From Bacteroidales bacterium (lineage in GTDB: Bacteria > Bacteroidota > Bacteroidia > Bacteroidales > P3), in assembly GCA_024400565.1 (NCBI GenBank), contig JAKSMQ010000021.1, positions 1 to 34,156 of the forward strand: a stretch of DNA of 34,156 nt. The letters are read 5' to 3'. Below are positions 524-28,724 of the stretch, in pieces. Every line of letters begins with the position of its first letter. Positions within the stretch are counted from its first letter, which is position 1. A model generated the notes under the pieces. It searched no databases. It was not told where the DNA came from and saw nothing but the letters and a program-made list of their open reading frames with translations. The position numbers and the translations under genes were made by a program.

Positions 524-600
524 CTATAGTGCCCGTATACTGGTCGTACACTGGTCGTACAGTGATTGTACCCCCAGGGGTACGGAAAGTATAAAGGCAT
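524..600. repeat. 11-bp-period array A with C/G palindrome
   Basis: Seven consecutive 11-base units in strict register: CTATAGTGCCC (524), GTATACTGGTC (535), GTACACTGGTC (546), GTACAGTGATT (557), GTACCCCCAGG (568), GGTACGGAAAG (579) and TATAAAGGCAT (590). Identity fades from the centre outward but the spacing never slips. Positions 568-583 form a near-perfect palindrome, GTACCCC and GGGGTAC around a 2-base centre. Confidence 0.8.
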
Positions 601-892
601 AGTTCCGTTGCAACTAAATCAATACCAACTCCAATACCTTATGCTATGTCGATATTGTTTTATGATATACTTAACTAATTAATAGTTAGATAAATATATG
701 GATATAAACGATTTTGGCACCCTCGAGAAATCAACTGAAACAACTGAAACTGAAACGCTACGGATGGAATATGTTTGTCTAAGAAGCTCAATGGCAACAG
801 GATACAGTATCGCCCGAGCCCAATTTCGCGAGAAGACTAATCTCAAAAGGGACTCCTTTTTGCTACGGAAATCTGCTCGATGGTCTCCAGAT

Positions 893-958
893 AGCGCATA
901 GGGAGCATATAAACAGCATATAGAGTGCATACAAACAGCACATAGGGGGCACTATAAG
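893..958. repeat. 11-bp-period array B, left arm of an inverted pair
   Basis: Six 11-base units in register: AGCGCATAGGG (893), AGCATATAAAC (904), AGCATATAGAG (915), TGCATACAAAC (926), AGCACATAGGG (937) and GGCACTATAAG (948). The stretch 896-920 is complementary to 988-1012 in the facing array at about 23 of 25 positions. Confidence 0.8.
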
Positions 959-975
959 TGGACGGCTGACTCTTT

Positions 976-1030
976 TTGTGCTTCAATTGTGCTGTTTATG
1001 TGCTCCCTATGCCGAGTCTGCATACTCTCA
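976..1030. repeat. 11-bp-period array B', right arm of an inverted pair
   Basis: Five units in register: TTGTGCTTCAA (976), TTGTGCTGTTT (987), ATGTGCTCCCT (998), ATGCCGAGTCT (1009) and GCATACTCTCA (1020). It faces array B across 17 bases; the two could pair as a long imperfect hairpin. Confidence 0.7.
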
Positions 1031-1296
1031 ATTGCCATATAATTGACCCGAATGCAATCTCCGGTCTGCGGGCAACTATTATCTATTGGGAATCCCTAAA
1101 ACGGGTTTAATTCATAAAATATGTTAAAACATTGGTTTTGCTTGCAACAAAATGGCAGTCTTCTACGTCTATTAGATCAAAGGAGATTTTATATATGGTC
1201 AGTAACGGAGCAGACAGACCTCTTTGCGCGAGTGGCGCAGAAGAGATTACCCCTAGCCGGGTCGGCCTTCCCTCAAGGAAGCTGTTAGCCTCGGCA

Positions 1297-4200
1297 ATGT
1301 ATAGGAGCATCAGGAATGTGCTCTTGCTTTCGGTTGCTTTGCTATTGTCTGTTGTCTGCTCTGCTCAGGATACCATTATGATTGTGCACGACAGCGTGTC
1401 GAATGAACGTATCCCTTTTCCCAACAATAAATACACTTGGACAGAAATGATATACAGGGCCGATGAGATAGGAAGGCCAGGTGTTATTTCGACCATTTCT
1501 TTTCAGCTAACCACTCCCGCATACGCGTCTTATTCAATGGGCGAGATTAATGTCTATATGGCCGAAAGAAGCAGCATGGCTTTTTCTAGTTCGTCAGACT
1601 GGACTTACGATACAGATTTGACATTGGTCTACTCATCACCAAATCATTTTGTTAGTGCCTCCGATCCGTGGTTTACCTTCGAGCTGCAGACTCCATATAA
1701 CTATTCGGGTGACGGCAATCTGGTTGTTATTGTTGCCAGAAAAAGTGATTATTCCACAACTCCTTTATTTAAATGCCATAGCGATACCTATAGTTCGGTG
1801 TTAAGCAGATCGTCGAATTATATTAATTATGGAGTGTATTGTCGCATAAATGGCTCTCTGCTGAGTTTTCGACCCAATATGATGCTCACTATGGAGTGTG
1901 ATTATGAGATTTGGAGTCGAGAGGTTTCGAATATTACTGCTACTTCGGCCGACATCAGCTGGACTGATTCCAGTTCAGCTACCCAATGGACAGTAGAATA
2001 CGGAACAATGCTCAACAGTCTGAACCAGCACATAACTACCGATGTGCCGCAGGTTACTCTGACCAACCTTATGTCTGACACAAACTATTATTTTACGGTA
2101 AAGAATAATGCGAATACCAACGACAGCGTAGGCCGTTGTTCCTCGAATCTGTCGTTCCATACTTTGTGCGATACCATTGGCGTTACCTTGATACATGATG
2201 TAGCAACGGGCCGGTTGGTAGTTGATACGGGTTCTTGTATCGATACTGTTGTCCTTACAGGAGGTACATCCGATGTGAATAATTATGTGGTAATAAAGAA
2301 CGGCTTTCATGGTACGGTAGTGCTTCGGAATCTGGATATGAGCTTCTTGTTGCAATATGGGGGGAACAATTCGCCCATCCGTGTGGAGGGAAGTTCCGTG
2401 TCGAATATGAGTGCCAATACGGAAGTGAACTTTATTCTGGACGGAAATAATTCCATAACGAACCTCGATAGAGGGAGGGCCTGCATACAAGTGGATCAGG
2501 GTACAACGGTTCGGTTCTCGGCCATCGATCCTGATGACAATTCAAGTGGAACGCTTTGTGTCAAACAATTGAATCAGAGAGGAGGAGCAGCTATTGGAAG
2601 TATAGAAAGGTCGGTAGGAAGTTCGTGGGGAACCTATGTTTCAGAGCCGATCTATTCCGCTCCGAATATATGGGGACAAGACGATTCTGTAGCGGGTGGC
2701 AATATCGTAATATCCAGCGGTCTTTACATGATAAAAGGCGGACATGGTGCCGGCATAGGCGGCGGACATGGCGTTTACTACGACGGCATGATCCTGATAT
2801 ACGGAGGGGAGGTAAGAGCCAGTACTATCTACCATGCAGCCGGAATAGGAAGTGGCTGTCCAACGGGAGCAGGCGTAGTGGCTAACAATACACTCCATAG
2901 CAGTATTATCGTATTGCCCCCGGCTCATGTTGAAGCCGTGGGGGCAATGGGAGTCAATCAGATTGCTCCATCGCTCGGACTTGCCGGCAGCAGGAGTATC
3001 GTCTACATAGGAGACCCCAACAGCCCGCTCATTCGGATCAGGACCAGCGACTACAGACCGAATGTGGGAGTCTATCTCGATCTGTCGAAGAATGAAACTA
3101 TAACCAATGTGATTCAGGCTCTTGTCGACTCCTTGACGCTCGACATTAGTGCCATTCGGGTCGGGACTACAGACAGCACGGGCGTATTCTCCTTCCATGG
3201 CGTATTTCAAGATTCTACCATCATCTTTACCGATGCCGTATCAGAATCGGGTATGCCGTATGAGAAAATCAATACGGTTATTACCGATGGCGGCACGGTG
3301 GTGTTGAATCCTGAAGCGGGAAACATGGCTATGCCATACTATCGTCCAGACCATCTTTTGGTGGGATATTCGGATGCCGAAGCCCAAAACGAGTCTCATG
3401 TGATGAAGATAACCTACTCCTCTCCATTGGACATTACGGATATAACCTTCAGGCTGAACAAAGGCGACACAAGTGACTTCCAGGGTTTGGAGTTTTATGG
3501 GCCGGACAGCACTTCCGCTATAGCCCTGCCCACCCAGCTTACGGCAGGCGATGTGGTATATGTGAGGAGTGTGCTGAAACCCGATAAGCCTGTCGGCGGC
3601 TATGACGATGTGTTGCACATAGAATGCACCTATGCCAACTCCACAAAAGGCATCTTTGAACAAAGAATAAACCAGTATGTGGTTTGTCTCGATACGATTA
3701 TGCTGTGTGATTCTACCAGATATACGCTTCCTGGCGGAAATGTTGTAACTGCTACAGGATTATATTTCGACACTATATCGACCTCTTATACTATTGCAGG
3801 ACATAGAGATACCATTGCGGTTTGCAATAATGAGAATCTTATCATCGATAAACCTGATACCCGTGTGCATCAGGATAGCGTATCGTATCACTATGTCGAA
3901 TTCAATATGATGCCGAAAGATACCCTCGTCGCAAGAATCTGCGATAGTATAATGTGGATGGATTCCACATTCTTCGTCTCGGGAAACTACCATTATCCCT
4001 ATCTGACGGAAGACGGCTATTGCGACTCGATGCATTATCTCTCGCTGGGTGTTTATCCTTCGTACAACGATACGATTGTCGACGAAGGATGTCAGGGCAC
4101 AGTCTATGAGATTCTGGACTTTACGGTCGACACTACAGGTGTCTATACTCATTACAACCAAAGTATCCACCAATGCGATAGTGTGTCGGTTTTGGATTTC

Positions 4201-4797
4201 ACGATACACCCCTCTTACAACGACACTATCGTAGCGTCTACATGCGACCTTCCTTATGAGGGAAATGGGTTCTATGCAGAAGAGTCGGGCATCTATCATC
4301 GGTATCTGAAGACGGTACAATATGGATGCGACAGTCTGAGACATCTCATCTTTAGGCGCAATCCGGTTTATAACGATACCGCCATAGGCGAGATTTATTA
4401 CGACCAGATCTATACCGGATACGATTTCCATGAGAACACGGAGGGATTCTATATCCATCAGTATACCGACGAAAACGGATGCGACAGCATTCAGAATCTC
4501 GACCTGCGGGTTATCCACCTGAGGTTTCCCAATATGGTGACTCCCAATGGGGATGGCATCAACGATGTGTATGAGGTTATAGACCTCTGTAGGGCGGAGA
4601 TGTTCAATTACACCTGTCTGTGGATTTATGACCGTACGGGTCGCAAGATATTCGAGAAGGAGAATATCCGAAGTATGGAGGATTTCTGGGATCCCAACAA
4701 GACCGGTTCGCCAACGGGGACCTATTTCTTCCGCTTTGTCGGACGAGCCCTGTTCAGGGTAATCGAGCATAAGGGCGTCATAGAGGTGTTGCGCTAA
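1297..4797 (+). CDS. T9SS type B secreted multidomain surface protein
   Basis: A 1166-residue protein exported through Sec and then the type IX system. Order: signal peptide (1-24, hydrophobic LLLSVALLLSVVCSAQ); an all-beta N-terminal domain (about 26-195) also present in the giant adhesin at 29092; fibronectin III (about 205-285, ending in TNYYFTV); a Gly-rich region (about 290-590) with GAGIGGG and HAAGIGSG turns typical of beta-helical carbohydrate-binding proteins; an Ig-like stretch; four to five repeats of about 60 residues marked by YNDTI and CDS (about 800-1075); and a gliding-motility-type C-terminal domain (1079-1166) beginning FPNMVTPNGDGINDVYE with GTYFFRF near the end. The start was chosen for the signal peptide; an in-frame ATG at 1195 with an SD-like sequence would add 34 residues. 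Adhesion or glycan binding is inferred. Confidence 0.88.
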   Translation: MYRSIRNVLLLSVALLLSVVCSAQDTIMIVHDSVSNERIPFPNNKYTWTEMIYRADEIGRPGVISTISFQLTTPAYASYSMGEINVYMAERSSMAFSSSSDWTYDTDLTLVYSSPNHFVSASDPWFTFELQTPYNYSGDGNLVVIVARKSDYSTTPLFKCHSDTYSSVLSRSSNYINYGVYCRINGSLLSFRPNMMLTMECDYEIWSREVSNITATSADISWTDSSSATQWTVEYGTMLNSLNQHITTDVPQVTLTNLMSDTNYYFTVKNNANTNDSVGRCSSNLSFHTLCDTIGVTLIHDVATGRLVVDTGSCIDTVVLTGGTSDVNNYVVIKNGFHGTVVLRNLDMSFLLQYGGNNSPIRVEGSSVSNMSANTEVNFILDGNNSITNLDRGRACIQVDQGTTVRFSAIDPDDNSSGTLCVKQLNQRGGAAIGSIERSVGSSWGTYVSEPIYSAPNIWGQDDSVAGGNIVISSGLYMIKGGHGAGIGGGHGVYYDGMILIYGGEVRASTIYHAAGIGSGCPTGAGVVANNTLHSSIIVLPPAHVEAVGAMGVNQIAPSLGLAGSRSIVYIGDPNSPLIRIRTSDYRPNVGVYLDLSKNETITNVIQALVDSLTLDISAIRVGTTDSTGVFSFHGVFQDSTIIFTDAVSESGMPYEKINTVITDGGTVVLNPEAGNMAMPYYRPDHLLVGYSDAEAQNESHVMKITYSSPLDITDITFRLNKGDTSDFQGLEFYGPDSTSAIALPTQLTAGDVVYVRSVLKPDKPVGGYDDVLHIECTYANSTKGIFEQRINQYVVCLDTIMLCDSTRYTLPGGNVVTATGLYFDTISTSYTIAGHRDTIAVCNNENLIIDKPDTRVHQDSVSYHYVEFNMMPKDTLVARICDSIMWMDSTFFVSGNYHYPYLTEDGYCDSMHYLSLGVYPSYNDTIVDEGCQGTVYEILDFTVDTTGVYTHYNQSIHQCDSVSVLDFTIHPSYNDTIVASTCDLPYEGNGFYAEESGIYHRYLKTVQYGCDSLRHLIFRRNPVYNDTAIGEIYYDQIYTGYDFHENTEGFYIHQYTDENGCDSIQNLDLRVIHLRFPNMVTPNGDGINDVYEVIDLCRAEMFNYTCLWIYDRTGRKIFEKENIRSMEDFWDPNKTGSPTGTYFFRFVGRALFRVIEHKGVIEVLR

Positions 4798-5135
4798 GGC
4801 TGATGGGGTAAGCCTGGACGGGTTCCTTGTTCCGAGGAGGGGAGTTGTATTTCTGCTCCTGATACAGGTTGTCCGTCAGGGCAGGAGTTATTCTTAGCAG
4901 GGAAAGTCTTTGCCGTAGGCAATAAAAAGGCAGTCGTTCTTATTTGTAGGGAAAGTCTTGGTCGGAGGCAATAAAAAGGGCAGGCTTTTTTCTTTGTAGG
5001 GAAAGTCTTAGTCGGAGGCAATAAAAAGGGTAGGAGGGACGTTATTATCTTTACAGGCCTGTATGTGGCGCTTCTCCCCGCAAGTTTGCCCAGGGACTGT
5101 CTGAAAAGAAACAAGAAATAATCCGGAATACCATT
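4798..5135. other. 338-bp gap with a 49/50-bp tandem repeat
   Basis: No gene is supported. The centre is the three-copy repeat annotated next. TATCTTTA at 5046-5053 resembles a -7 box with its last base changed and could serve the thiamine-binding gene at 5136. No terminator hairpin was seen after the surface protein gene. Confidence 0.5.
4898..5032. repeat. three-copy tandem repeat, 49/50-bp period
   Basis: A conserved core of about 33 bases begins at 4898, 4947 and 4997. Each copy starts (C/T)AGGGAAAGTCTT and ends GGCAATAAAAAGG. Spacers of about 16 bases between cores are T-rich and less conserved. Copies 2 and 3 are nearly identical in the core; copy 1 differs at a few positions. Neither strand gives a credible protein. 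Confidence 0.8.
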
Positions 5136-5441
5136 ATGTCTGTACTCATCCAGTTTGCTATGTTCCCCACCGACAAGGGCGAGAGTGTGAGCCCCTATGT
5201 TGGTCGTCTGTGGGATGTAATCAAGGCCTCGGGCTTCCCCTATCAGACCAACTCGATGTCTACTGCCGTAGAGACCGAAACGGTCGAAGAGGCCCTCGGA
5301 GTAGTGGCCGACTGCTACAACGCGCTCAAACCCGACTGCAACCGTGTCTATACAACCTTTACCATGGACGTGCGCCAGGATCACTCCAACTGTATGGAGA
5401 ACAAGGTCAAGTCGGCGCTCAACCACACCAGCAATCCTTAA
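5136..5441 (+). CDS. MTH1187/YkoF-type thiamine-binding protein
   Basis: A 101-residue protein of the MTH1187 (thiamine-binding, DUF77-like) family. The N-terminal strand SVLIQFAMFPTDKGESVSPYV, the central YQTNSMSTAVETETVEEAL and VYTTFTMDVRQDHSN near the C-terminus match the family pattern of a ferredoxin-like fold that binds thiamine or hydroxymethylpyrimidine-like ligands; usual length is about 100 residues, so it is complete. It is cytoplasmic. No thi gene, TPP riboswitch or transporter is visible nearby, so the link to thiamine rests on the family alone. The ATG is the first in frame; no SD is present. Confidence 0.82.
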   Translation: MSVLIQFAMFPTDKGESVSPYVGRLWDVIKASGFPYQTNSMSTAVETETVEEALGVVADCYNALKPDCNRVYTTFTMDVRQDHSNCMENKVKSALNHTSNP

Positions 5442-5546
5442 GCCCGCCATACTTCTTTCGGAGGACTTGCTGTTAATAAAATGAAAATTTGGGGTACTAA
5501 ATACTAAAATCCGGCAGATTGAGTTATTATATAAATGCTTTATTCT

Positions 5547-6239
5547 ATGAAAAGATTCTATCTCCGCATAATTCCTCTCCTGGTCATGCTCCTCGCTGGC
5601 TATGTGTCTGAGGCACAGCTGTTCAAGGTTTCAAAAAGCAAAGATCTCAAGGTGTCTGCCAACGTGACCCCCATCCAGATCTCCAATTCGGCAACCATCA
5701 TCGGACAGCCCGACTCGCGCGACAACAAGCTTGTTATGGCCGTTGTCTTTGAGGGCGATACCATTCCCTATATCATTCTGAAGACGGTCATGATTACGGG
5801 CAGCTCTTCGCTTCTCACACCCGAGGAGATCCGCAAGAACAAGAAGCTTATTGTCAACGTGAAGAAGATGCTCCCCTATGCCAAACTGGCCCGTCAGGAG
5901 CTGGACAAGGTAGAGAAGGAGGCCGGCAATCTTCCCAGCAAGGACCGCAAGGAGTATATCAAGAATATGGAGAAGGAGATGCTGGCTCAGTATACCGAAG
6001 AGCTGAAGAAGTTTACCATCTCGCAAGGCAAGGTGTTGCTGAAACTTGTGGACCGTGAGACTTCGCGCACATCGTATGTGATTGCCAAAGAGCTCAGAGG
6101 TAAGTTCCGCGCAGGTTTCTACCAGACTTTTGCCCGTCTGTTCGGATACAATCTGAAAGACCATTACGATCCCCGCCACAATAAGGAGGACAATCTGATA
6201 GAACGTATCGTGCTCACGGTAGAGGCCGGTAAGATATAA
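5547..6239 (+). CDS. DUF4294 family exported protein
   Basis: A 230-residue protein from the ATG at 5547. Residues 1-23 are a signal peptide (LRIIPLLVMLLAGYVSEAQ). The body matches DUF4294, a Bacteroidota-restricted family of unknown function: the opening VVFEGDTIPYIILKTVMI, a helical middle rich in Lys and Glu (about 90-160), and the end part KLVDRETSRTSYVIAKELRG with RAGFYQTFARLFGYNLKDHYDP. It is probably periplasmic. An in-frame ATG 12 bases upstream is possible, but the chosen one places the Lys-Arg n-region directly before the hydrophobic core. The peptidase gene follows after 35 bases, so the two may be co-transcribed. Confidence 0.8.
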   Translation: MKRFYLRIIPLLVMLLAGYVSEAQLFKVSKSKDLKVSANVTPIQISNSATIIGQPDSRDNKLVMAVVFEGDTIPYIILKTVMITGSSSLLTPEEIRKNKKLIVNVKKMLPYAKLARQELDKVEKEAGNLPSKDRKEYIKNMEKEMLAQYTEELKKFTISQGKVLLKLVDRETSRTSYVIAKELRGKFRAGFYQTFARLFGYNLKDHYDPRHNKEDNLIERIVLTVEAGKI

Positions 6240-6274
6240 AAGTCGGACCGCCAGTAGAATCTGCCCGCGCCGGT

Positions 6275-7198: not shown

Positions 7199-7313
7199 TC
7201 CGCTGGATTTATTAGGCAAAAGCAAGATAAAGAGCTTTCTTCCGAAACGATGGGGGAATACTATACGTACGTTGTCCTCAATGTTGTCTTGTAACCTATG
7301 TCTGCTTTATTTC

Positions 7314-7411
7314 GAATTGCCTTGAGGCCTCTTTGGGAGGGCTAGATGAACTTTATTTAGAATTGACCTGAGGCCTCTTTGGGAGTACTAGACGTACCTT
7401 ATCTTGAATTG
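7314..7411. repeat. 46-bp tandem repeat overlapping a gene's 3' end
   Basis: GAATTG recurs at 7314, 7360 and 7406, exactly 46 bases apart. The block GAGGCCTCTTTGGGAG is the same in the first two copies. The third copy lies inside the 3' end of the minus-strand gene 7388-7702 and diverges after its first bases, so the last codons and stop of that gene are part of the repeat. Confidence 0.75.
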
Positions 7412-7702
7412 TCGGGTGACCTCTATCTCGGGCAGACCCTGGTCGTCGGGAGTATAGATAATCGACATTCCCCGATAGGCAGAAGGTATCCGGATGGTTG
7501 CTCCTTCGCTCAGAAGCCTGTCCCATTGGGGCAACCCAAAGTCGTAGGATGCCCCATAGAGAAGGATTCTGCAATTGGTATAGTCGAACTCGTAGAAGCC
7601 CCCTCCATAGCACTCGTCGAAAGCGCCTAGAAGCTCTTTGTGAAGGCCTACGTCGCCAAGGCGGAAATCTCCGCGGTCGGTAAGGATAAACTTTTGTGCC
7701 AT
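7388..7702 (-). CDS. conserved-looking hypothetical protein, 104 aa
   Basis: A 104-residue protein that I do not recognise. It has no signal peptide or membrane segment. The sequence is mixed alpha/beta with aromatic clusters (YGGGFYEFDY, GASYDFGLPQWD) and a beta-like end (GLPEIEVTRQFKIRY). The start codon (CAT at 7700-7702 on the plus strand) lies 15 bases after the fucosidase stop, so the two are probably co-transcribed. The C-terminal residues FKIRYV and the stop lie in a 46-bp tandem repeat, so the natural end of this protein may have been moved by the repeat. Confidence 0.62.
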   Translation of the reverse strand: MAQKFILTDRGDFRLGDVGLHKELLGAFDECYGGGFYEFDYTNCRILLYGASYDFGLPQWDRLLSEGATIRIPSAYRGMSIIYTPDDQGLPEIEVTRQFKIRYV

Positions 7703-7717
7703 AGAGGGTTCTAGATA

Positions 7718-9172: not shown

Positions 9173-9206
9173 GCTGTAAGTGTGATTGATATTGATTATG
9201 AGGTCT

Positions 9207-9249: not shown

Positions 9250-9265
9250 AAGGGACAGATCAGAT

Positions 9266-10720: not shown

Positions 10721-10831
10721 TTTGATTTCGAAATTAACCCCAAAGGTTCTCTTATCTGCTTGTGAATAACGCAAATGTGTTTTCGACAGGTTTCCGCCCT
10801 AAAGGTCTCCTTTGAGAAGTTTGCGTAATGC

Positions 10832-10897
10832 CTCGGAGTTGCGTCGGGGTAGAGTCGGTCTATCTTCGGTCTAGCGTCCACCTAGCGTCCACTTTTG
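10832..10897. repeat. 11-bp-period array C, left arm
   Basis: Six units in register: CTCGGAGTTGC (10832), GTCGGGGTAGA (10843), GTCGGTCTATC (10854), TTCGGTCTAGC (10865), GTCCACCTAGC (10876) and GTCCACTTTTG (10887). Neighbouring units share parts, so the array reads as a chain that drifts gradually from one sequence to another. Confidence 0.8.
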
Positions 10898-10915
10898 ACC
10901 TCGAATATGGACTCA

Positions 10916-10981
10916 AAGTGGACGCTAAGTGGACGCTAAGTGGACGCTAGGTGGGCGCTAAGTGGACGCTAAGAGGGGAGA
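10916..10981. repeat. 11-bp-period array C', right arm
   Basis: AAGTGGACGCT occurs at 10916, 10927, 10938 and 10960, with the variant AGGTGGGCGCT at 10949 and a decayed unit from 10971. It is the reverse complement of the CTAGCGTCCAC units at 10871 and 10882 in array C, so the two arms can form a stem of about 22 bp around a loop of about 23 bases. Confidence 0.88.
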
Positions 10982-11944: not shown

Positions 11945-11974
11945 CACAATCACACATCAATATAACCGACTGTT

Positions 11975-13234
11975 ATGTCTACAATAGCTGATATTGCCGC
12001 ACAAGATAAAGACCTTTCCTACATCATTCCTCCTGTTGACCGCGAGCTGATAAAGGCCGAGCTCAAGGAACAGCATTTCCTTCGCAAGACCAACAACGGA
12101 GACAAGGAAATCTACATCACAACAGCCCATCTTTCGCCCAACATTATGCAGGAGATTGGCCGACTGAGAGAACTCTCCTTTGCCCTCGAGGGTGGCGGAA
12201 CGGGAAAATCGGTCGATATTGACGAATTCGACACCCTTCCCGAGCCCTACTGTTTCAAGCAGCTCTTTGTGTGGAGTCCTGCCGACGAGGAGATTGTGGG
12301 CGGCTACCGATTCATACATGGAAGCAATATGTATCGCTCCGTCGACGGCAAAATCCTTACCCCCACGGCCGAACTGTTCCAGTTTACCGAAGAGTTCATC
12401 AACAACTATCTGCCCTATACCATCGAGCTGGGCCGCTCGTTCGTTCAGCCGGCCTTTCAGCCCAGCAACAATCTCCGCAAGGGTATGTATTCGCTCGATA
12501 ATCTCTGGGACGGACTGGGCTCCCTGGCGGTAGAGATTCCCGAGACCCACTATTTCTTTGGCAAGGTTACCATGTACAGCCATATGAACCGACGGGCCAA
12601 AGACCTGATACTCTATTTTTACCAGATGCATTTTCCCGATGCCGACGGCTTGATGTGGCCTACCGACCCGCTTGAGATTGAGAGCGACCTCAACGAGCTT
12701 CACAGACTCTTCTCGGGCCACAACTACAAGGAGAATTATCAGATTCTCCAGCGTGAGGTCCGCGCCCTGGGCTCCTTTGTCCCTCCCCTCATAAATGCTT
12801 ATATGAATCTCTCGGCAACCATGCGCTCGTTCGGAACGGCCTACAACCACGAATTCGGCGAGACCGATGAGACGGGTATCCTGGTTACCTTGCGTGATAT
12901 TTTCCCCGACAAGAAGAGCCGTCATATCGAGAGCTATGATGTTAAGAATCATCAGTTCAACCGCAGAGGCCTCTTCAAGATAGATATGACCCGTCTGCCC
13001 TGGTGGCGCAAGAAATCGAACAACGAGGTCGAAGAGGAGTTGCGTCTGCTGAAGCGTATGCAGAGAGCCCGTAAGCGTGCCGAAGCTGCTGCCGAGGCCG
13101 ACAGGGAATTTAACGAACGCCCCCTCAGACGAGCCCGTGCCCAGCGTCAGGAACGCCGACAGGAGCGTCGACAGGAACGCCGTCAGGTTCGCCAGACCAG
13201 ACGTCAGAATCGCCGAAACAAGAAAGAACAATAA
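11975..13234 (+). CDS. glsB: GNAT/hemolysin-type N-acyltransferase, probable GlsB, with Arg-rich tail
   Basis: A 419-residue member of the OlsB/hemolysin-type acyltransferases. Residues about 45-250 form the acyl-ACP-dependent domain: SPNIMQEIGRLRELSFALEGGGTGKSVDIDEFD, VGGYRFIHG, IELGRSFVQPAFQP and GKVTMYSHMN. It should transfer a 3-hydroxy fatty acid to the amino group of glycine. Two-gene GlsA/GlsB and fused OlsF systems use the same chemistry. The last 60 residues are a strongly basic charged helix and tail, with QERR repeated three times and most positions Arg, Gln or Lys; this could bind anionic membrane or RNA. EngB starts 3 bases after the stop, showing tight coupling. Confidence 0.8.
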   Translation: MSTIADIAAQDKDLSYIIPPVDRELIKAELKEQHFLRKTNNGDKEIYITTAHLSPNIMQEIGRLRELSFALEGGGTGKSVDIDEFDTLPEPYCFKQLFVWSPADEEIVGGYRFIHGSNMYRSVDGKILTPTAELFQFTEEFINNYLPYTIELGRSFVQPAFQPSNNLRKGMYSLDNLWDGLGSLAVEIPETHYFFGKVTMYSHMNRRAKDLILYFYQMHFPDADGLMWPTDPLEIESDLNELHRLFSGHNYKENYQILQREVRALGSFVPPLINAYMNLSATMRSFGTAYNHEFGETDETGILVTLRDIFPDKKSRHIESYDVKNHQFNRRGLFKIDMTRLPWWRKKSNNEVEEELRLLKRMQRARKRAEAAAEADREFNERPLRRARAQRQERRQERRQERRQVRQTRRQNRRNKKEQ

Positions 13235-19994: not shown

Positions 19995-20198
19995 TTACTT
20001 TTTTCATTACCAAATGTATACAACGGTTAAGGGAGATCTTATCTTCTTATCTTTCTTTCTAACCCGTTGGCGGAATTCAATTATGCTCTGGGAAAAATCG
20101 CCAAAGTTTTCTTACTTGAACTTATTCCTGAATTTTTTGCAGATGTCGGGTTGATTGGCGTACACCTGAAAAATGCTCATACTATTACTATGCAGTTT

Positions 20199-20270
20199 CT
20201 TTACCCCGGGGGTAAAGGCACCCTAAAGGCACTATACAACCACTATATAACCAGCGTATAGAGACTATTC
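20199..20270. repeat. 11-bp-period array D with 19-bp palindrome
   Basis: A perfect palindrome, CTTTACCCC-G-GGGGTAAAG (20199-20217), leads into 11-base units in register: GGGGGTAAAGG (20208), CACCCTAAAGG (20219), CACTATACAAC (20230), CACTATATAAC (20241) and CAGCGTATAGA (20252). The palindrome next to the array repeats the design of array A. Confidence 0.8.
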
Positions 20271-20684
20271 AATCACAATAATTGAATGGTTGGTCCTGAT
20301 TTTTTTTGTATGTGGGTGGTTTTCAGAGAGACTCTCTTGCCCTCTCGCATCTGATTTCTGTCTGCATATTTCAAAGTTCCTCCGATATATAATTTTGCCA
20401 ACGGGTTGTGAAAGTAAATGTCTATAAATATTGTTCAGCGTTGTCGAGAGGCCTATCTGGATAAAACCGATGGGTTTTGTGGAAATAATGATGATTGGAA
20501 AAACTGAGAATCGTTATGCCGAAAATGAGAAAGATATTTGTGTTTTGAAATGTTAAATTTTAAGATTTCAACGAGTTAAAAAGATTAAAGAGAGAGCTTT
20601 CGTAAATCAAAAATTTTAACATTTATAGTGGAGGTTTTATCTATTTTTTTTGAAAAATATTTTTTCTACTACCAATATATTTTC

Positions 20685-20721
20685 TATCTTTGCATCACTT
20701 GAGTCGGCGTTAGCCCAACTC
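20685..20721 (+). promoter_or_regulatory. yeiH promoter and leader hairpin
   Basis: TATCTTTG at 20685-20692 is a -7 box followed by C. The leader of about 125 nt opens with a small imperfect hairpin (about 20701-20721: GAGT pairs with ACTC, GGC with GCC, loop GTTA). Whether this hairpin regulates the gene is not known. Confidence 0.55.
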
Positions 20722-20821
20722 GTGAATTAACTAAAAATACTGAAAATAAGATTTCTGATTTGTAGAATAATTCTAGTTTGACTAAAAAAAACATTGTAAA
20801 ACATAAATATTTTTCTCTATT

Positions 20822-22201: not shown

Positions 22202-22204
22202 TAA

Positions 22205-22516: not shown

Positions 22517-22549
22517 TCGTCGTGTTTATATCAATACTCGGTTAGGGGA

Positions 22550-22597
22550 AAAAGAAGGAATCAGGTTCGTGCATAAGTGCAACGAACCTGATTCTTA
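22550..22597. terminator. strong bidirectional terminator between yeiH unit and cdaA
   Basis: GAATCAGGTTCGT (22558-22570) pairs perfectly over 13 bp with ACGAACCTGATTC (22582-22594), around an 11-base loop. The minus strand continues into CTTCTTTTTC, so it fits best as the cdaA terminator; the plus side ends in a weaker TTATAT. Confidence 0.88.
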
Positions 22598-22621
22598 TAT
22601 CGGAGTGCGGAAGAGAAACAA

Positions 22622-23419: not shown

Positions 23420-24267
23420 AGTTTTTGCAAAACGTTAATGGTTTGTACTGTTTCTTTTACGTCGTGGACTCTCAGCAGTTGAGCTCCCATCCGTAGTGCT
23501 TCGCTTCCCAGAACCAAGGTACCAGGCATAGCATCTTGAGGTGTCGTACCGTCGAGTTTGTAGATCATTGACTTACGCGAAACGGCTACCAGCAGAGGTT
23601 CGTTGGGGAAGAGTTGTTTCAGTTCGGGCAATTGGGAAAAGAGCTGGTAGTTGTCGTCGAGAGTCTTGGCAAAGCCGAATCCTGGGTCGAGTATCACATC
23701 ACGTGCCCCCAATCGGTAGAGTCTCTCCAATCGTTGAGAAAAATAGAGTGCGACCTCTTGCAGTATGTTGTCGTAGTGAGGATTGTCTTGCATATGGTCG
23801 GGCTTCCCTTGGGTGTGCATCAGAATATAAGGTACGCCCATTTCAGCAACAAGGGGTATCATTCTGTCGTCAAACTGACCGCCCGAGATGTCGTTGATGA
23901 TATCGGCACCGGCTTCGATGGATTTTTCGGCAGGGATTGAATAACAAGTGTCGACCGAGATGATGCTATCGGGGAAGCGTTCGCGTATCATCTTGATGAC
24001 AGGTACTAGTCGTGCAGCCTCCTCGTTAGGCTCTACCAATTGAGCCCCGGGACGAGATGATGAGGCTCCGATATCGATAATGTCAGCACCCTCGGTAATA
24101 ATCTGCTCGGCACGTGCAAGGATGCTTTCTGGGTTTACGTAACGTCCTCCGTCGTAAAAAGAATCGGGTGTAATGTTGAGTATTCCCATTACAGCAGGAC
24201 GGGAAAAAGTATGCAATTTTTTACGGCAAACAATGCTGATTGGTGAAAAAGTTGTATCTTTGCTCAT
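23407..24267 (-). CDS. folP: dihydropteroate synthase
   Basis: A 286-residue TIM-barrel enzyme that joins pterin pyrophosphate to p-aminobenzoate in folate synthesis; it is the sulfonamide target. Motifs: MGILNITPDSFYDGG (27-41), DIIDIGASSSRPGAQ (62-76), SVDTCYS, INDISGG, LDPGFGFAKT, and the end SEALRMGAQLLRVHDVKET. All are intact. It is cytoplasmic. The 3' end overlaps cdaA by 13 bases, so translation of the two is probably coupled. It is divergent from the DUF1599 gene. Confidence 0.94.
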   Translation of the reverse strand: MSKDTTFSPISIVCRKKLHTFSRPAVMGILNITPDSFYDGGRYVNPESILARAEQIITEGADIIDIGASSSRPGAQLVEPNEEAARLVPVIKMIRERFPDSIISVDTCYSIPAEKSIEAGADIINDISGGQFDDRMIPLVAEMGVPYILMHTQGKPDHMQDNPHYDNILQEVALYFSQRLERLYRLGARDVILDPGFGFAKTLDDNYQLFSQLPELKQLFPNEPLLVAVSRKSMIYKLDGTTPQDAMPGTLVLGSEALRMGAQLLRVHDVKETVQTINVLQKLWNC

Positions 24268-24347
24268 AATATCTTGGTCCGATATTGTTGTTCTTACAAT
24301 TGACGTTCAGTTGTCTAGACTGAGTGTGAAGGTTGAATATTGAACCA

Positions 24348-24355
24348 CAAAGATA
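24348..24355 (-). promoter_or_regulatory. folP-cdaA promoter, minus strand
   Basis: The minus strand reads TATCTTTG across 24355-24348, preceded by A/T-rich sequence. The start would be near 24343, about 75 bases before the folP ATG. A plus-strand TATCTTTG at 24251-24258, inside the start of folP, is a possible promoter for the divergent DUF1599 gene. Confidence 0.6.
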
Positions 24356-24383
24356 CAAAATTTATAGAAAATACATAATAAAA

Positions 24384-24926
24384 ATGCACAATACAAAAGA
24401 AGAATTTGCGGTAGAGATAGCTCGTTGCAGAAGTATTTACGAGAAGAAGAGTCGCGACTATGGCACCTCTTGGCGCATATTGCGACTTCCCTCACTTACC
24501 GACCAGATTTTTATCAAAGCCAACCGCATTCGCAGCATTCAGGAAAGTGGCGTAAATATGGTGGGCGACGATTTTGGTGGTGAGTTTATCGCTATGGTCA
24601 ACTATTGCGTAATGGCACTCATTCAGCAAGAGCTAGGTCCCGATGGCAATATGGAACTCCCTCTCGACGAAGCCTTGGCTCTCTATGATAAGCATATTAC
24701 CCGTACTACCGACCTTATGCTCAACAAGAATCACGATTATGGCGAGGCCTGGCGTCAGATGCGTATCAGCTCGATGGTCGACCTGATTCTGATGAAACTT
24801 CGTCGCATAAAGCAGATTGAGGACAATCAAGGCAAGACGCTTATCTCCGAAGGCGTAGAGGGCAGTTATATGGATATCATCAACTACTCCATCTTCTGTC
24901 TTATCCGCCTTACCGAAGGAGAATAG
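24384..24926 (+). CDS. tandem DUF1599 protein (nucleotide-modification-associated domain)
   Basis: A 180-residue protein made of two copies of the DUF1599/Nmad1 domain. Copy 1 (about 8-82) has KKSRDYGTSWRILR, then ANRIRSIQE and EFIAMVNYCVMALIQ. Copy 2 (about 100-176) has NKNHDYGEAWRQMR, then LRRIKQIEDNQ and YMDIINYSIFCLIRL. The family name comes from its co-occurrence with DNA base-modification genes in phages; in Bacteroidota it is a chromosomal gene of unknown role. No modification genes are near. ATG 24384 is chosen because upstream codons include the folP promoter. It is the first gene of a cluster running to 27916. Confidence 0.85.
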   Translation: MHNTKEEFAVEIARCRSIYEKKSRDYGTSWRILRLPSLTDQIFIKANRIRSIQESGVNMVGDDFGGEFIAMVNYCVMALIQQELGPDGNMELPLDEALALYDKHITRTTDLMLNKNHDYGEAWRQMRISSMVDLILMKLRRIKQIEDNQGKTLISEGVEGSYMDIINYSIFCLIRLTEGE

Positions 24927-24968
24927 AATGACACTTTATTTCGATTAACGAATATAAAATACGTACTT

Positions 24969-26150
24969 ATGAAAGAAACAAAAACAGGACATATCGTTAA
25001 TATTATCTGTCGTTGGGTTGTAGGCTTGACGTTTATCTTCTCTGGTTTCGTAAAAGGTGTCGACCCTCTAGGAACAGCTTATAAGATTCAGGAGTATATG
25101 ACAGCTTGGAGTGTAGGAAGTCTCACTTTCGAGTGGGCTACACCAATGGCACCATTCCTGTCGGTTTTCCTTGTAACACTCGAGTTTGTGGTTGGCGTAA
25201 TGCTTATCACCAATTGTTACCGACGTCTCACAGCATGGGCGTTGGGTTTGATGATGCTCTTCTTCTTCACCACCACCCTTATTGATGCGCTTACCAATAA
25301 GGTGACCGACTGTGGTTGTTTTGGTGATGCTATTCACCTGACCAATTGGGAGACCTTCTTCAAGAATGTGGCACTTATGGTTCCAACAATCATAATATTT
25401 GTGCAGCGTCGCAAGAAATGGAATCACAAACTTCGTTTGGAACGCGAAACACTTGTAGCCATCTGCTCCATAGCTGCTATGGTAATATTTGCTTGCTGGA
25501 ATATCAATAACGAACCATGCATCGACTTCCGCGCCTGGAAGGTTGGCAATCAGATGATGCCTTTCGGCGAGAATATTGAGAAGAAGAGTTATCTCACGTA
25601 TAAGAATAAAACTACAGGCGAGACGATAGAGTTCGAAAGTAAGAAGTTGATGGACTATTATGCAGATTCTACTTGGAAAGACAACTGGGAGTTTGTTGAC
25701 AGTCGCGTAGAGGATCCCTACGAGATTAAGGCCGACGGCTTCTCGATGTTAGGCCCCGATGGCGAGGATAATGCCAAGGAGATTATCGCTAGCGAAGAGC
25801 CTGTACTCATAGCAACCATTCATCATATTGACGATGTAGATAAGAAAGGTGTGGCTGCATTAAAACGCATTCACAACTATTGCATTGAGCAGAATATTAA
25901 TTTGGTGTTGCTCTCTTCGGTTGAAGGAGACCTTGAACAGTTTCTCCATGTCAATGATTTAAGTATGATGAACTACTTCCTTACCGATACCAAAGCAATT
26001 GAGACTATGCTCCGTTCCAATCCCGGATTCATTCTTATCCACAATGCTAAGGTAATCGACAAGTGGCATTACAAGAACTATGAGAAGATTCTTCAATTCG
26101 ATTTCGCCAAACTGATGAATTCGAACAACGAAGAGACTTCGCAAGAATAA
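24969..26150 (+). CDS. DoxX/MauE-like membrane protein (BT_3928-like)
   Basis: A 393-residue protein with an N-terminal DoxX/MauE-like four-helix membrane domain (about 8-145) and a long C-terminal part. The first helix pair has RWVVGLTFIFSGFVKGVDPLG, characteristic of the family. Cys115 and Cys117 (DCGCFGD) sit after helix three; in MauE-like proteins such Cys pairs handle disulfides. A fifth helix (about 158-176) leads into a soluble domain (about 200-385) with a thioredoxin-like look (EPVLIATIHHIDDVDKKGV, NPGFILIHNAKVIDKWHY) but no CxxC. Bacteroidota proteins of this layout are common but uncharacterised. A role in envelope redox is inference. Confidence 0.82.
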   Translation: MKETKTGHIVNIICRWVVGLTFIFSGFVKGVDPLGTAYKIQEYMTAWSVGSLTFEWATPMAPFLSVFLVTLEFVVGVMLITNCYRRLTAWALGLMMLFFFTTTLIDALTNKVTDCGCFGDAIHLTNWETFFKNVALMVPTIIIFVQRRKKWNHKLRLERETLVAICSIAAMVIFACWNINNEPCIDFRAWKVGNQMMPFGENIEKKSYLTYKNKTTGETIEFESKKLMDYYADSTWKDNWEFVDSRVEDPYEIKADGFSMLGPDGEDNAKEIIASEEPVLIATIHHIDDVDKKGVAALKRIHNYCIEQNINLVLLSSVEGDLEQFLHVNDLSMMNYFLTDTKAIETMLRSNPGFILIHNAKVIDKWHYKNYEKILQFDFAKLMNSNNEETSQE

Positions 26151-26191
26151 AATTCCCCAACAGTTTAATCTCAAGATTCAAATAGAAAAAT

Positions 26192-26665
26192 ATGATTCAA
26201 CGTATCCAATCCTTCCTCCTTGTGCTTGCAGCTTGTGGCGCAGCCCTTTGTCTCATGTTTCCTGTAGCGCTTTATGCTCCTGCAGGCGAAGATCCCCAGA
26301 TGGCACTCTACCTCTTGCCCCACTCAAGCGATGCCATCGCTTTTATCCGAATCGACTGGATTCTTACCGTGCTGATGTTCCTTATCGGCATCATTTCGCT
26401 TGTAAGCATCTTCTTGTATAAGAACCGCATCCGTCAGATGAGAGTAGTAACCGTCAATGTTCTCCTCAGCGCAGTCTATATTGCTCTCACTCTCCTCTAT
26501 TCAGTTGACCATGCACTTGCCGTAGCACATCTGCCCGGCAACCTCGAACCCAATTACTCCATCGGCTCTTATATCCCCATGGTAATGGCCGTATTGCTTA
26601 TTATCGCCCAGCGTTGCATCCGTGCCGACGAGATGAAGGTACGTGCAGCCGACCGTCTCCGTTAA
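26192..26665 (+). CDS. DUF4293 family membrane protein
   Basis: A 157-residue inner-membrane protein with four predicted helices (about 5-27, 50-72, 83-104 and 126-144). The opening MIQRIQSFLLVLAA is the signature of DUF4293, a Bacteroidota family of unknown function, often beside rho or housekeeping genes. The C-terminus is basic (ADEMKVRAADRLR) and should face the cytoplasm. It lies 41 bases after the DoxX-like gene and 15 bases before tsaE, within one probable operon. Confidence 0.83.
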   Translation: MIQRIQSFLLVLAACGAALCLMFPVALYAPAGEDPQMALYLLPHSSDAIAFIRIDWILTVLMFLIGIISLVSIFLYKNRIRQMRVVTVNVLLSAVYIALTLLYSVDHALAVAHLPGNLEPNYSIGSYIPMVMAVLLIIAQRCIRADEMKVRAADRLR

Positions 26666-26680
26666 GTCTTTCTTCTGGTT

Positions 26681-27109
26681 ATGACTACTACTATCACATT
26701 CTCGTCAGTAGAAGAGCTGCCTACTGTTGCTAGACAGTTGCTGGAGACATATCCCGAGGAGCGTTTCTATGCCTTCTTCGGAAAGATGGGAGCAGGCAAG
26801 ACTACCCTCATCAAAGAGTTGTGTGCCCGGCTGGGAGTAGAGGACAATGTCTGCAGCCCAACCTTTGCCATCATCAACGAATATTCATCGGGCGAGGGCG
26901 AACCGGTGTACCATTTCGATTTCTATCGTCTCAAGAGTCTCGACGAAGCCTACGACCTGGGCTATGAGGAGTACTTCTATAGCGGATGCTACTGTTTCTC
27001 CGAGTGGACAGAGAAGATAGAGCCCCTGTTGCCAGAACATTACCTTCGCGTCGCTATAGATGAGGTCGATGCAATACGCACCCTCACGGCCGAAGTGGTT
27101 GATGAGTAG
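26681..27109 (+). CDS. tsaE: tRNA threonylcarbamoyladenosine ATPase TsaE
   Basis: A 142-residue P-loop protein that drives the TsaB-TsaD-TsaE complex making t6A37 on ANN-decoding tRNAs. Motifs: Walker A GKMGAGKTT (34-42), the SPTFAI motif (about 66-71), HFDFYRL with the Walker B-like Asp, and FSEWTEKI. The length is normal. It is cytoplasmic. The stop overlaps or nearly abuts the next gene. No other tsa gene is in the window. Confidence 0.92.
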   Translation: MTTTITFSSVEELPTVARQLLETYPEERFYAFFGKMGAGKTTLIKELCARLGVEDNVCSPTFAIINEYSSGEGEPVYHFDFYRLKSLDEAYDLGYEEYFYSGCYCFSEWTEKIEPLLPEHYLRVAIDEVDAIRTLTAEVVDE

Positions 27110-27137
27110 TCCTTCTTACTTTAAATCTGCAATTCCA

Positions 27138-27653
27138 ATGACACCATTCACTCCGATATTCTCACAGCTTCCCCCTCAGGCACCACCTCTTTCCAAAGCG
27201 GTGGCGCAGGCATTGGCCGAGCGTGAGATTTCCAAACAGGATATCCTGGCCCTCGTTACCGAGCAGGGAATCTGCGACCTCAATGAGGTGATAAATCAGC
27301 TGGGCTATCTTTTCTTCTATTATGCCTTCAGGGCACTCAACGACCATGTACTCACGCCCGAGGAAAAGATGAACGCCCTCTACCTCAAACGCACATTCGG
27401 TTTCAAGGAAGGCTTCTTTTTTCAGAACTTCTATCGTGAAACCCAGACTCTCGTGTCGAAACAGCTTCAGCTGATCTATGCCGACAACAAGGTGACCGAA
27501 GCGGAACGACAGCATATTGCCGATATACAGGAACTCTTCGACTTGAGCTTTGCTCAGATGGATGAGTTTAAGGCGGTTTTTGTGGATAAGGCTTTAGCAG
27601 ATGGCGCAAACTTGAACGAACTCGACACTAACCTTTCTGATTCAACAATCTAA
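27138..27653 (+). CDS. hypothetical helical protein, TerB-like
   Basis: A 171-residue mostly helical protein without export signal. Two halves look alike in pattern: about 35-90 (ISKQDILALVTEQGICDLNE...) and about 110-160 (SKQLQLIYADNKVTEAERQHIADIQELFDLS), each with an acidic DxxVTxxE-type turn. LIYADNKVTEAERQHI resembles the acidic helix turn of TerB-like domains, so a TerB-type fold is likely but unproven. ATG 27138 is chosen for its A/T-rich approach; ATG 27102, overlapping the tsaE stop, would add 12 residues. Function is unknown; position suggests co-transcription with tsaE. Confidence 0.68.
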   Translation: MTPFTPIFSQLPPQAPPLSKAVAQALAEREISKQDILALVTEQGICDLNEVINQLGYLFFYYAFRALNDHVLTPEEKMNALYLKRTFGFKEGFFFQNFYRETQTLVSKQLQLIYADNKVTEAERQHIADIQELFDLSFAQMDEFKAVFVDKALADGANLNELDTNLSDSTI

Positions 27654-27664
27654 AATACCCGGCA

Positions 27665-27916
27665 ATGAAAGAGATTATCATAGTATTGGGAGCAGCTATG
27701 GCGGTTATAGCCTTTGCTTTTGTAGGACTCGGTATCAAGATACTGGTCAAGAAGAACGGCGAGTTCAAGCGCCATTGTTCGAGTGTCGACCCTTATACCG
27801 GAGAACGCTCGGGTTGTGTGTGCGGAAAAACCATCCTCGACAAGTGCAAGACCTCTCCCCAATACCATCCCCTCGAGGTCAATAAAGAGCTCCTGGACGA
27901 AGTAAATGGAAAATAA
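27665..27916 (+). CDS. small Cys-rich membrane-anchored protein
   Basis: An 83-residue protein with one N-terminal membrane helix (about 4-27, IIIVLGAAMAVIAFAFVGLGIKIL) and a basic stop (KKNGEFKRH), followed by a soluble tail with five Cys: C39, then CVC, and C in LDKC. The layout resembles NqrM-like small proteins (helix plus Cys cluster) involved in metal delivery to the Na+-NQR, but I cannot confirm it. It starts 11 bases after the preceding stop and is the last protein gene before tRNA-Ser. Confidence 0.68.
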   Translation: MKEIIIVLGAAMAVIAFAFVGLGIKILVKKNGEFKRHCSSVDPYTGERSGCVCGKTILDKCKTSPQYHPLEVNKELLDEVNGK

Positions 27917-27918
27917 TT

Positions 27919-27949
27919 TTTGTCAGTTTCAAAAATGTTTGTATCTTTG
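27919..27949 (+). promoter_or_regulatory. tRNA-Ser promoter abutting the mature 5' end
   Basis: TTTG (27919-27922), 19 bases, then TATCTTTG (27942-27949) is the same spacing as the promoter at 166-196. The start would be at about 27952-27955, and the mature tRNA begins at 27955. Confidence 0.75.
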
Positions 27950-27954
27950 CTCTC

Positions 27955-28039
27955 GGAAGGATGGCAGAGTGGTCGAATGCGGCGGTCTTGAAAACCGTTG
28001 ACCTTCACGGGTCCGGGGGTTCGAATCCCTCTCCTTCCG
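27955..28039 (+). tRNA. tRNA-Ser (anticodon UGA)
   Basis: An 85-nt class II tRNA. The acceptor stem GGAAGGA pairs with TCCTTCC and the discriminator is G at 28039. The anticodon stem CGGTC/ GACCG-like segment holds TTGAAAA with anticodon TGA, reading UCA and other UCN codons. A variable arm (TTGACCTTCACGGGTC) is present, as expected for serine. The T-arm has GGGGGTTCGAATCCCTC. CCA is not encoded. Confidence 0.93.
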
Positions 28040-28055
28040 CTCAAGAAAAATACTC

Positions 28056-28095
28056 AAAAATCTGCAAATTCGTTTGCGGATTTTTCTTTTTATAC
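28056..28095 (+). terminator. terminator after tRNA-Ser, UUCG tetraloop
   Basis: Bases 28056-28068 pair with 28073-28085 over 13 bp (one G-U), closed by TTCG (28069-28072), then TCTTTTTAT. It is a textbook intrinsic terminator. Confidence 0.92.
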
Positions 28096-28511
28096 ACGGT
28101 TTTGAGGGTGGAAAATTACTTTGTTTTGTTTTTTTTAACATTTGCTGTTTGGGATTGCATCAACAGTCAGAAATGAATGGTAGGGTAGGGGCGTTCTGGC
28201 TCCTTTGCTTTGGTCTTATTGGAGGTAAACTGCTACCTGGTAGGGGGCGGTAAAGGGAAGATAGTGCTCCGACAAGTGAGTGCTCCGAAAGAGGCTAAAT
28301 TATACAATGATTAAGCAGGAACAGCACTCCGATAAGTCAAGTCTGGCCCAATAACAATACTCCACTAACGGACTAGGGAGTCCTTGATCAGAAGAACCCT
28401 GACAGCAATCTGACCTAAGGGTAACGCAATCTTTGTATAGGGCAGATGAATGAATAACGCACTATCAGTCTCTAGAGGGGACTTCCGACAACCAATGGGA
28501 AATGTATGTGC

Positions 28512-28665
28512 AACCTAGGCCGAACCTAGGCCGAACCTAGGCTGAACCTAGGCCGAACCTAGGCCGAACCCAAGCCGAATCCTAATCGAATCCTAGTCAA
28601 GTCCTAGTTAAGCCTAGGCCGAATCTAGGCCGAACCTAAGTCGAATCTAGGCTGAATCCAGGCTA
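28512..28665. repeat. 11-bp-period array E, 14 units
   Basis: Fourteen units in exact register from 28512. The head unit AACCTAGGCCG is repeated at 28512, 28523, 28545 and 28556, with AACCTAGGCTG at 28534. Units then drift: AACCCAAGCCG, AATCCTAATCG, AATCCTAGTCA, AGTCCTAGTTA, and back toward AGCCTAGGCCG, AATCTAGGCCG. Not one insertion or deletion breaks the 154-base run. Most units contain CCTAGG or a close variant, a 6-base palindrome. Confidence 0.92.
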
Positions 28666-28724
28666 AGAAGTACGAGCAGACCCAGGCATCCTGAATCTTT
28701 ACGGTTTGATTGAGTCGCGAAGGA

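What the first reader, a model, noticed from the sequence alone, without database searches (positions are those of the whole stretch)
524..28676. A family of intergenic arrays with strict 11-bp period across the window
Four separate gaps (524-1030, 10832-10981, 20199-20270, 28512-28665) carry arrays of 11-base units. Unit sequences differ between arrays and drift within them, yet the register never slips, even where neighbouring units share only half their bases. Slippage-made minisatellites usually lose register as they decay, so either units are copied and mutated by a process that measures 11 bases, or the spacing is selected. Eleven is not a multiple of three, so they do not code; it is close to one helical turn, so each unit would present the same face of DNA. 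No gene in the window explains them.
Basis: partly seen in the sequence, partly recalled or inferred. Interest (0 to 1): 0.85.

Follow-up and report, generated by a model that had tools for sequence, protein, structure and literature searches.

The report
Genus-wide 11-bp hairpin repeat families
The gaps between genes in this gut bacterium hold families of scattered DNA repeats built from 11-base units, often able to fold into long hairpins; sampled related species carry different sequences but the same 11-base unit, which hints at an unknown ruler in repeat evolution.

Summary
The arrays are real and 11 bp is special. In 422 kb of this genome lag-11 segments number 35 intergenic and 2 coding; on shuffle-tested pieces, 34 against a mean of 0.10. 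Two corrections: 524-1030 holds two arrays of different families, and the register slips once, near 28605-28612. The arrays belong to repeat families scattered through the genome; two of the four gaps share one family. The trait is clade-specific: 10 of 20 stretches from the same genus have intergenic lag-11 arrays, against 0 of 22 from nine other genera of the family, which peak at 21-22 bp instead. The unit sequences I searched for are confined to one species or a few, in up to about 100 arms per strand per genome, while the length stays. Many copies are palindromes; in one relative, arm variants match in 38 of 42 hairpins; loops are species-specific even at two shared sites. Best reading: lineage-specific, non-coding, MITE/REP-like palindromic repeats whose units change number in whole steps and are homogenised. 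Why 11 (and 21-22) is unresolved; helical phasing is preferred but unproven. No mobilising enzyme was identified; RAYT transposases do not fit.

The parts
525..571 (+). Direct 11-bp array, family V (units of the kind GTACACTGGTC), between a conserved leader and flank
   Evidence: aligned with copies elsewhere
569..582 (.). G+C-rich palindrome that closes the family V array (TACCCCCAGGGGTA)
   Evidence: read directly; present in all 7 aligned copies with changes; 520-600 folds with z -3.24
893..957 (.). 11/22-bp array, family III (units of the kind AGCATATAAAC)
   Evidence: 24 of the 46 genome matches of query 500-1060 fall on this unit region
883..1025 (.). Palindrome formed by the family III array and an inverted copy (arms 883-918 and 990-1025, 81% complementary)
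   Evidence: folds with z -6.73
10829..10892 (-). Left arm array of a family I hairpin (reverse complement of units of the kind GTGGACGCTAG)
10908..10976 (+). Right arm array of the family I hairpin (TGGACGCTAAG, 6 copies)
   Evidence: whole palindrome 10836-10980 folds with z -5.90; the unit pair occurs 36 times forward and 51 reverse in this genome
20199..20217 (-). G+C-rich palindrome closing the second family V copy
   Evidence: read directly; aligned
20213..20253 (-). 11-bp array of the second family V copy, opposite orientation to the first
   Evidence: folds no better than shuffles (z -0.47)
28512..28664 (+). Direct array, family II (AACCTAGGCCG), about 13 units, with one register shift near 28605-28612; no inverted partner arm above control
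   Evidence: z -2.09

Best explanation
The arrays are parts of several families of non-coding, dispersed, often palindromic repeats (MITE/REP-like in behaviour) in intergenic DNA of one Bacteroidales genus. Shown in the samples examined: dispersal; intergenic location; unit sequences confined to one or a few species; a unit length shared across the genus; frequent palindromes, with arms that carry matching variants in the one family tested; copies that differ by whole units; species-specific loops at two shared sites. Inferred: units multiply by tandem duplication in whole-unit steps; copies spread by transposition or by recombination-based copying; arms and copies are kept alike by copying between them. 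Not shown: why the unit is 11 bp here and 21-22 bp in other genera of the family. My preferred cause is that each unit is a contact site of a mobilising or architectural protein that has to recur on the same face of the helix, so that only arrays with a unit of about one or two turns persist and multiply.
For: Lag-11 excess in intergenic DNA. Dispersed copies in the genome. Inverted partner arm within 150 bp above the control 95th percentile in 10 of 35 own arrays and 31 of 65 in relatives. G012: 44 forward and 43 reverse arms, 42 pairs at a fixed 45-bp offset, variants matched between arms in 38 of 42; 16 copies aligned. Whole-unit differences: L005 against L006, L229 short of 22 bp in one arm. 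Species-specific loops: 12 of 12 in G230, 8 of 8 in G023. Clade limits: 10 of 20 genus stretches, 0 of 22 from nine other genera of the family, which show lags 21, 22 and 42.
Against: No mobilising gene, clean empty site or target-site duplication was found; at the two sites where G008 lacks the repeat the alignment gives no clean boundary. In the one shared segment of about 36 kb the sites are stable, not hopping. 25 of 35 own arrays have no inverted partner above control, and two of the window's arrays hardly fold, so a palindrome is not universal. Relatives also have 7-bp arrays (43 segments), which helical phasing does not explain; 11 bp is not an exact fit to B-DNA. Some lag-11 segments in relatives fall in called ORFs (25, 6), probably but not provably spurious ORFs.
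Confidence: 0.55

Rival explanations
1. Ordinary tandem repeats with an inherited period: 11-bp duplications arose in a few ancestral repeats of this genus and were copied around with them; nothing measures or selects 11.
For: Adjacent units are most alike (0.809 identity adjacent, 0.656 five apart, 13 arrays; 0 of 2000 unit-order permutations reach the difference; partly built in by segment choice). Whole-unit copy differences. A register slip exists.
Against: The units of different families and species look unrelated, yet 11 recurs; other genera of the family repeat the pattern with 21-22 bp and multiples, which a single founder does not explain.
Confidence: 0.22
2. Arrays of regulator or nucleoid-protein binding sites in promoter regions, spaced by helical turns and kept by selection on gene expression.
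For: Unit lengths of 11 and 21-22 bp; some 21-22 bp units look dyad-like by eye; arrays are somewhat more frequent in divergent gaps (6 of 23 own and 26 of 127 in other genus-set loci, against 10 of 58 and 27 of 212 tandem gaps).
Against: Dyad symmetry of 21-22 bp units exceeds the control 95th percentile in only 24% of 25 units. Near-identical palindromes of about 100 bp in dozens of copies exceed what a regulator needs. Arrays also lie in convergent gaps (3 of 22 and 11 of 76).
Confidence: 0.14
3. RNA-level hairpins (terminator, attenuator or double-stranded RNA signal) in which 11 bp equals one turn of an A-form helix (helical value recalled).
For: Very stable predicted stems: z -5.9 and -6.7 for two window regions, -12.7 to -18.7 for three relatives.
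Against: No preference for convergent gaps; in tandem gaps arrays sit mid-gap (median 0.46-0.50), not at gene ends. Direct arrays without a stem share the 11-bp period. No Rfam family matches in the window other than a tRNA. Transcription was not testable here.
Confidence: 0.07
4. REP/REPIN elements mobilised by a RAYT (TnpA-REP, Y1 transposase family).
For: High-copy, intergenic, palindromic; Y1_Tnp matches in 5 of 11 genus genomes examined, including G012, G023 and G230.
Against: No match in G210 (205 arm matches, 97% complete), G016 (100%), G008 (88%), G014, G041 or the window's genome (71.6% complete). Of three Y1 loci read with about 1.5 kb on each side, L321 and L323 show no family hairpin and L322 has a related array and a single unit at its edge.
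Confidence: 0.02

Closest known systems
BrickBuilt MITE of Porphyromonas gingivalis (PMC4596501; abstract, sections 5 and 8 and part 1 of section 7 read)
   Same: Bacteroidales; intergenic; dispersed (19 copies in one strain); core of imperfect tandem units without spacers; unit number differs between strains; predicted long stem-loops
   Different: 23-nt unit of one conserved sequence in P. gingivalis, with homologues reported in P. gulae; leader and tail with IS5-like terminal repeats; here many unrelated unit sequences share a length of 11 bp across a genus
PINSR of Prevotella intermedia/nigrescens (PMC4755523; passages and section 14 read)
   Same: Clade-limited, intergenic, 177-184 copies, no coding content; about three-quarters of sites shared between two strains, like the stable sites in the one segment compared here
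   Different: 188-bp repeat reported without terminal inverted repeats; no 11-bp unit is described in what I read
REP/REPIN elements with RAYT transposases (PMC3116915, PMC3733652, PMC8266576; search listing and start of abstracts only)
   Same: High-copy intergenic palindromes, different in different lineages
   Different: Small (20-40 bp) palindromes tied to a Y1 transposase; here longer arms with an 11-bp period, and no such gene found in several hairpin-bearing genomes
Heptamer TAACTGA direct repeats in Beggiatoaceae, Cyanobacteria and some Bacteroidetes (PMC4679880; abstract and outline read)
   Same: Intergenic short tandem arrays of a fixed unit length; comparable to the 7-bp arrays seen in relatives here
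   Different: One conserved heptamer; here the length is kept while the sequence differs
Over-representation of 6-11 bp tandem repeats in intergenic DNA of a few archaea (PMC4060949; passages only)
   Same: Intergenic tandem repeats of similar unit size
   Different: A survey count without unit families, palindromes or a preferred length

Membership tests
MITE | Short, non-coding, dispersed in many copies | tested here: met
   arrays are mainly intergenic
MITE | Defined ends with terminal inverted repeats | tested here: inconclusive
   G012 copies are palindromes with outer arms that fade beyond the 13 bp outside the unit array (16 copies); no separate terminal repeat was isolated
MITE | Target-site duplication at an occupied site against an empty site | tested here: inconclusive
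   two sites lacking the repeat in G008, alignment too diverged for clean boundaries
MITE | Related autonomous element with the same ends | not tested
   no search for transposases bounded by hairpin ends was made; only the Y1 family was searched
REP/REPIN | High-copy intergenic palindromes | tested here: met
REP/REPIN | RAYT (Y1) transposase in the genome, flanked by the palindromes | tested here: not met
   no Y1 match in G210, G016 and four more of 11 genomes; three Y1 loci not framed by the hairpins
REP/REPIN | GTAG or CGTC tag at one end | not tested
   feature known from a listing only
BrickBuilt | 23-nt tandem unit | tested here: not met
   units are 11 bp
BrickBuilt | IS5-like terminal repeats on leader and tail | not tested
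   no search for those ends was made
Minisatellite (tandem repeat with copy-number change in whole units) | Copies that differ by whole units | tested here: met
   L005 against L006, one unit; L229, 22 bp
CRISPR array | Repeats separated by unique spacers | tested here: not met
   units are contiguous, no spacers

The most novel reading that the evidence does not exclude
A lineage-specific ruler: in this genus a process or selection fixes repeat units at about one helical turn (11 bp), and in other genera of the family at about two (21-22 bp), while the unit sequence turns over and is homogenised within a species. That would be a repeat system conserved in geometry but not in sequence, with an unknown protein that reads spacing.
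Probability: 0.33. Interest if true: 0.82.

Novelty: new variant of a known kind. Interest (0 to 1): 0.6.

Why it matters
Bacterial intergenic repeats are normally recognised by sequence. Here the property that is shared across species is unit length, which sequence searches do not see. If the preference for 11 and 21-22 bp reflects selection or a measuring process, the question of what protein drives or tolerates such repeats becomes testable, and genomes with roughly a hundred near-identical hairpins offer a natural case of concerted evolution among dispersed bacterial repeats.

Tried and rejected
RAYT/REP origin: rejected as a general cause. CRISPR: no spacers. Coding origin: 35 of 37 own lag-11 segments are intergenic. 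Assembly artefact: the pattern recurs in many separate assemblies, although several matches to window 500-806 lie near contig ends. Terminator role: no preference for convergent gaps or gene ends; a mild excess in divergent gaps. RNA families: only a tRNA-Ser in the window. Dyad operators as the nature of the 21-22 bp units: weak (24% of 25 units above the control 95th percentile). Lag-7 arrays as the same phenomenon: in relatives 5 of 55 have an inverted partner above control, but 2 of 6 in the own genome do, so undecided there. Strain comparison of the window's own loci: not possible. An attempt to compare arrays in 11 pairs of near-identical named loci gave whole-unit differences for two 7-bp arrays (61 against 40 bp; 42 against 7 bp) but mostly missing flanks for 11-bp arrays. 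Literature: searches listed no report of an 11-bp intergenic array system in Bacteroidales; two searches returned no paper at all, and most subscription papers are not in the library.

Biases. Lag-11 segments are found by adjacent similarity, so the fall of similarity with distance is partly built in. Counts include runs of N (seen in L065, L072 and L095); one search leaves pieces with N out. Gene calls are crude ORF calls. The 80 named loci are the best 80 of 202 and are not all proven to be of the same genus; at least 21 are identical over the compared stretch to loci of genus genomes. Stretches from one genome are not independent, so the Fisher values on stretches (1e-4) are rough: the 20 genus stretches come from 14 genomes, the 22 of the other genera from 21 genomes. 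The loop count takes loops of 3-8 bases only; one G230 hairpin with a longer loop (L296, 7815-7922) is outside it.
Full report
Observation. The window is the whole of contig 14 of a 1.89-Mb, 57-contig, 71.6% complete genome; the named loci nearest to one of its genes come from uncultured Bacteroidales and Bacteroidetes assemblies, many from rumen or gut. A scan of lags 4-60 finds six lag-11 segments in the window, and no lag other than 11 and its multiples gives more than three; TRF agrees. Six stand against none in each of 20 dinucleotide shuffles of the window's intergenic pieces. In 421,656 bp of the same genome (20 stretches plus the window, 88% called coding), lag 11 gives 35 intergenic and 2 coding segments; outside 11, 22 and 33 no lag from 4 to 40 gives more than 6 intergenic. 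On the shuffle-tested pieces the figures are 34 against a mean of 0.10. So the period is real, specific and mainly intergenic.

Dispersed families. The query 500-1060 matches 46 places in the genome, itself included; 24 fall on the 883-958 unit region, others on 500-636 and 641-806. The unit pair GTGGACGCTANGTGGACGCTA, up to one mismatch, occurs 36 times forward and 51 reverse here and in none of the other 118 genus genomes searched. The arrays at 525 and 20.2 kb are one family in opposite orientations with partly conserved surroundings. Among its copies L005 and L006 differ by one 11-bp unit in otherwise similar sequence, and L026 repeats a different unit throughout. So units change number in whole steps and become alike within a copy.

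Palindromes. An inverted partner arm within 150 bp exceeds the 95th percentile of matched random intergenic segments for 10 of 35 own arrays and 31 of 65 in relatives; for lag-7 arrays 5 of 55 in relatives and 2 of 6 in the own genome. In the window, 10836-10980 and 883-1025 fold far better than shuffles (z -5.9, -6.7), 520-600 moderately (-3.2), 28510-28658 and 20190-20275 little (-2.1, -0.5). Relatives show the form most clearly: L055 1945-2070 folds into one nearly uninterrupted stem of about 50 bp (z -18.7) with an 11-bp period over most of it. In that species (G012), 44 forward and 43 reverse arms occur, 42 of them paired at a constant 45-bp offset; the unit variant in one arm is matched in the other in 38 of 42 pairs (2x2 Fisher p 9e-8). 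Sixteen aligned copies show outer arms that continue the palindrome and then fade, and one copy (L229) short of 22 bp, two units, in one arm.

Species specificity and homogenisation. A second family (ACTGAAGAAC, any base, ACTGAAGAAC) is found in 9 of 119 genus genomes and is abundant in three: 108/97, 95/92 and 76/73 forward/reverse matches. G008 and G230 are 85% and 84% identical to G023 in one gene. In about 36 kb of shared gene order all three array sites of G230 are also occupied in G023; G008 lacks the repeat at the two sites that could be compared. Two of the three shared sites carry the hairpin with a loop, and there the loops differ between the species. Over all distinct hairpins matched, 12 of 12 in G230 have CAAAC (either strand) and 8 of 8 in G023 have GC-type loops (GCCGC five times, GCTAC, GCCAC and GCAGC once each); one G230 hairpin with a longer loop lies outside that pattern. 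Stable sites with species-specific loops are the mark of concerted evolution.

Distribution. Twenty 20-kb stretches from 14 other genomes of the genus give 13 intergenic lag-11 segments in 10 stretches (and 6 in called ORFs); twenty from the order, two of them from the same family, give one; twenty from class and phylum give one. Twenty-two stretches from nine other genera of the family, the two just named included, give none, but give 17 segments at lag 21 and 8 at lag 22. On their N-free intergenic pieces the counts are 17 at 21, 8 at 22, 12 at 42, 4 at 63 and 7 at 66; shuffles, run for lags 5-34 only, reach at most 2 at lag 21 and 1 at lag 22 in 8 trials. The 80 named loci give 63 at lag 11 and also 43 at lag 7; the 7-bp arrays look like a second phenomenon.

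How it probably works. Shown in the samples: dispersal, palindromes with matched arms in the family tested, whole-unit changes, species-specific loops, a unit length shared by the genus. Inferred: whole-unit duplication by slippage or unequal exchange, copying between arms and copies, spread by an unidentified agent. RAYT transposases are not that agent in general: no Y1 match in six of 11 genus genomes, among them hairpin-rich G210, complete G016 and the window's own genome, and the three Y1 loci read are not framed by the hairpins. The preference for 11 and 21-22 bp is the open question. It could be inherited from founders or reflect helical phasing of protein contacts (21 is two turns of B-DNA, 11 one turn of an A-form helix; recalled). 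The 7-bp arrays and the inexact fit of 11 to B-DNA count against phasing. Gene context gives little: arrays occur in tandem, convergent and divergent gaps, with a mild excess in divergent ones.

Against known kinds. The nearest published repeats I found are BrickBuilt of Porphyromonas gingivalis and PINSR of Prevotella, both clade-limited and intergenic; [quoted passage not shown] None of my nine paper searches listed a system in which unit length is shared across species while sequence is not. I file this as a new variant of a known kind: it works like a MITE or REP family, but MITE membership is unproven and REP membership fails on the transposase.

Noticed in passing
window 641-806: Another dispersed element of about 150 bp, AT-rich, flanked in copies L002-L004 by repeated TGAAAC motifs in opposite orientations; in the window it overlaps a 67-codon ORF (698-901). 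Several copies lie near contig ends.
   Followed up: partly
L026, L006 and L005, upstream of the family V array: A conserved leader in front of the array (ATGAAAAAGATGCG..., a possible short reading frame after a TTTGC motif) in copies outside the window.
   Followed up: no
80 named relatives, e.g. L102 8140-8193, L038 3918-3979: Intergenic 7-bp tandem arrays are the second favoured period in relatives (43 segments); two aligned pairs differ by whole 7-bp units.
   Followed up: partly
L302 15214-15296, L308 9377-9485, L310 11352-11451: 22-bp arrays in other genera of the family whose units contain a short palindrome (e.g. GATGTACATC every 22 bp).
   Followed up: partly
window 4878-5034, 7305-7424, 28725-28783: Tandem repeats with periods of about 50, 46 and 31 bp, unrelated in length to the 11-bp arrays.
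   Followed up: no
window 13143-13187: 12-bp tandem repeat inside the reading frame 11975-13234 (in-frame period).
   Followed up: no
window 1132-4797 and 29092-34155: Two large proteins with fibronectin type III domains; the first ends in a type IX secretion signal domain.
   Followed up: no
window 27955-28040: tRNA-Ser (anticodon TGA) upstream of the 28.5-kb array.
   Followed up: no
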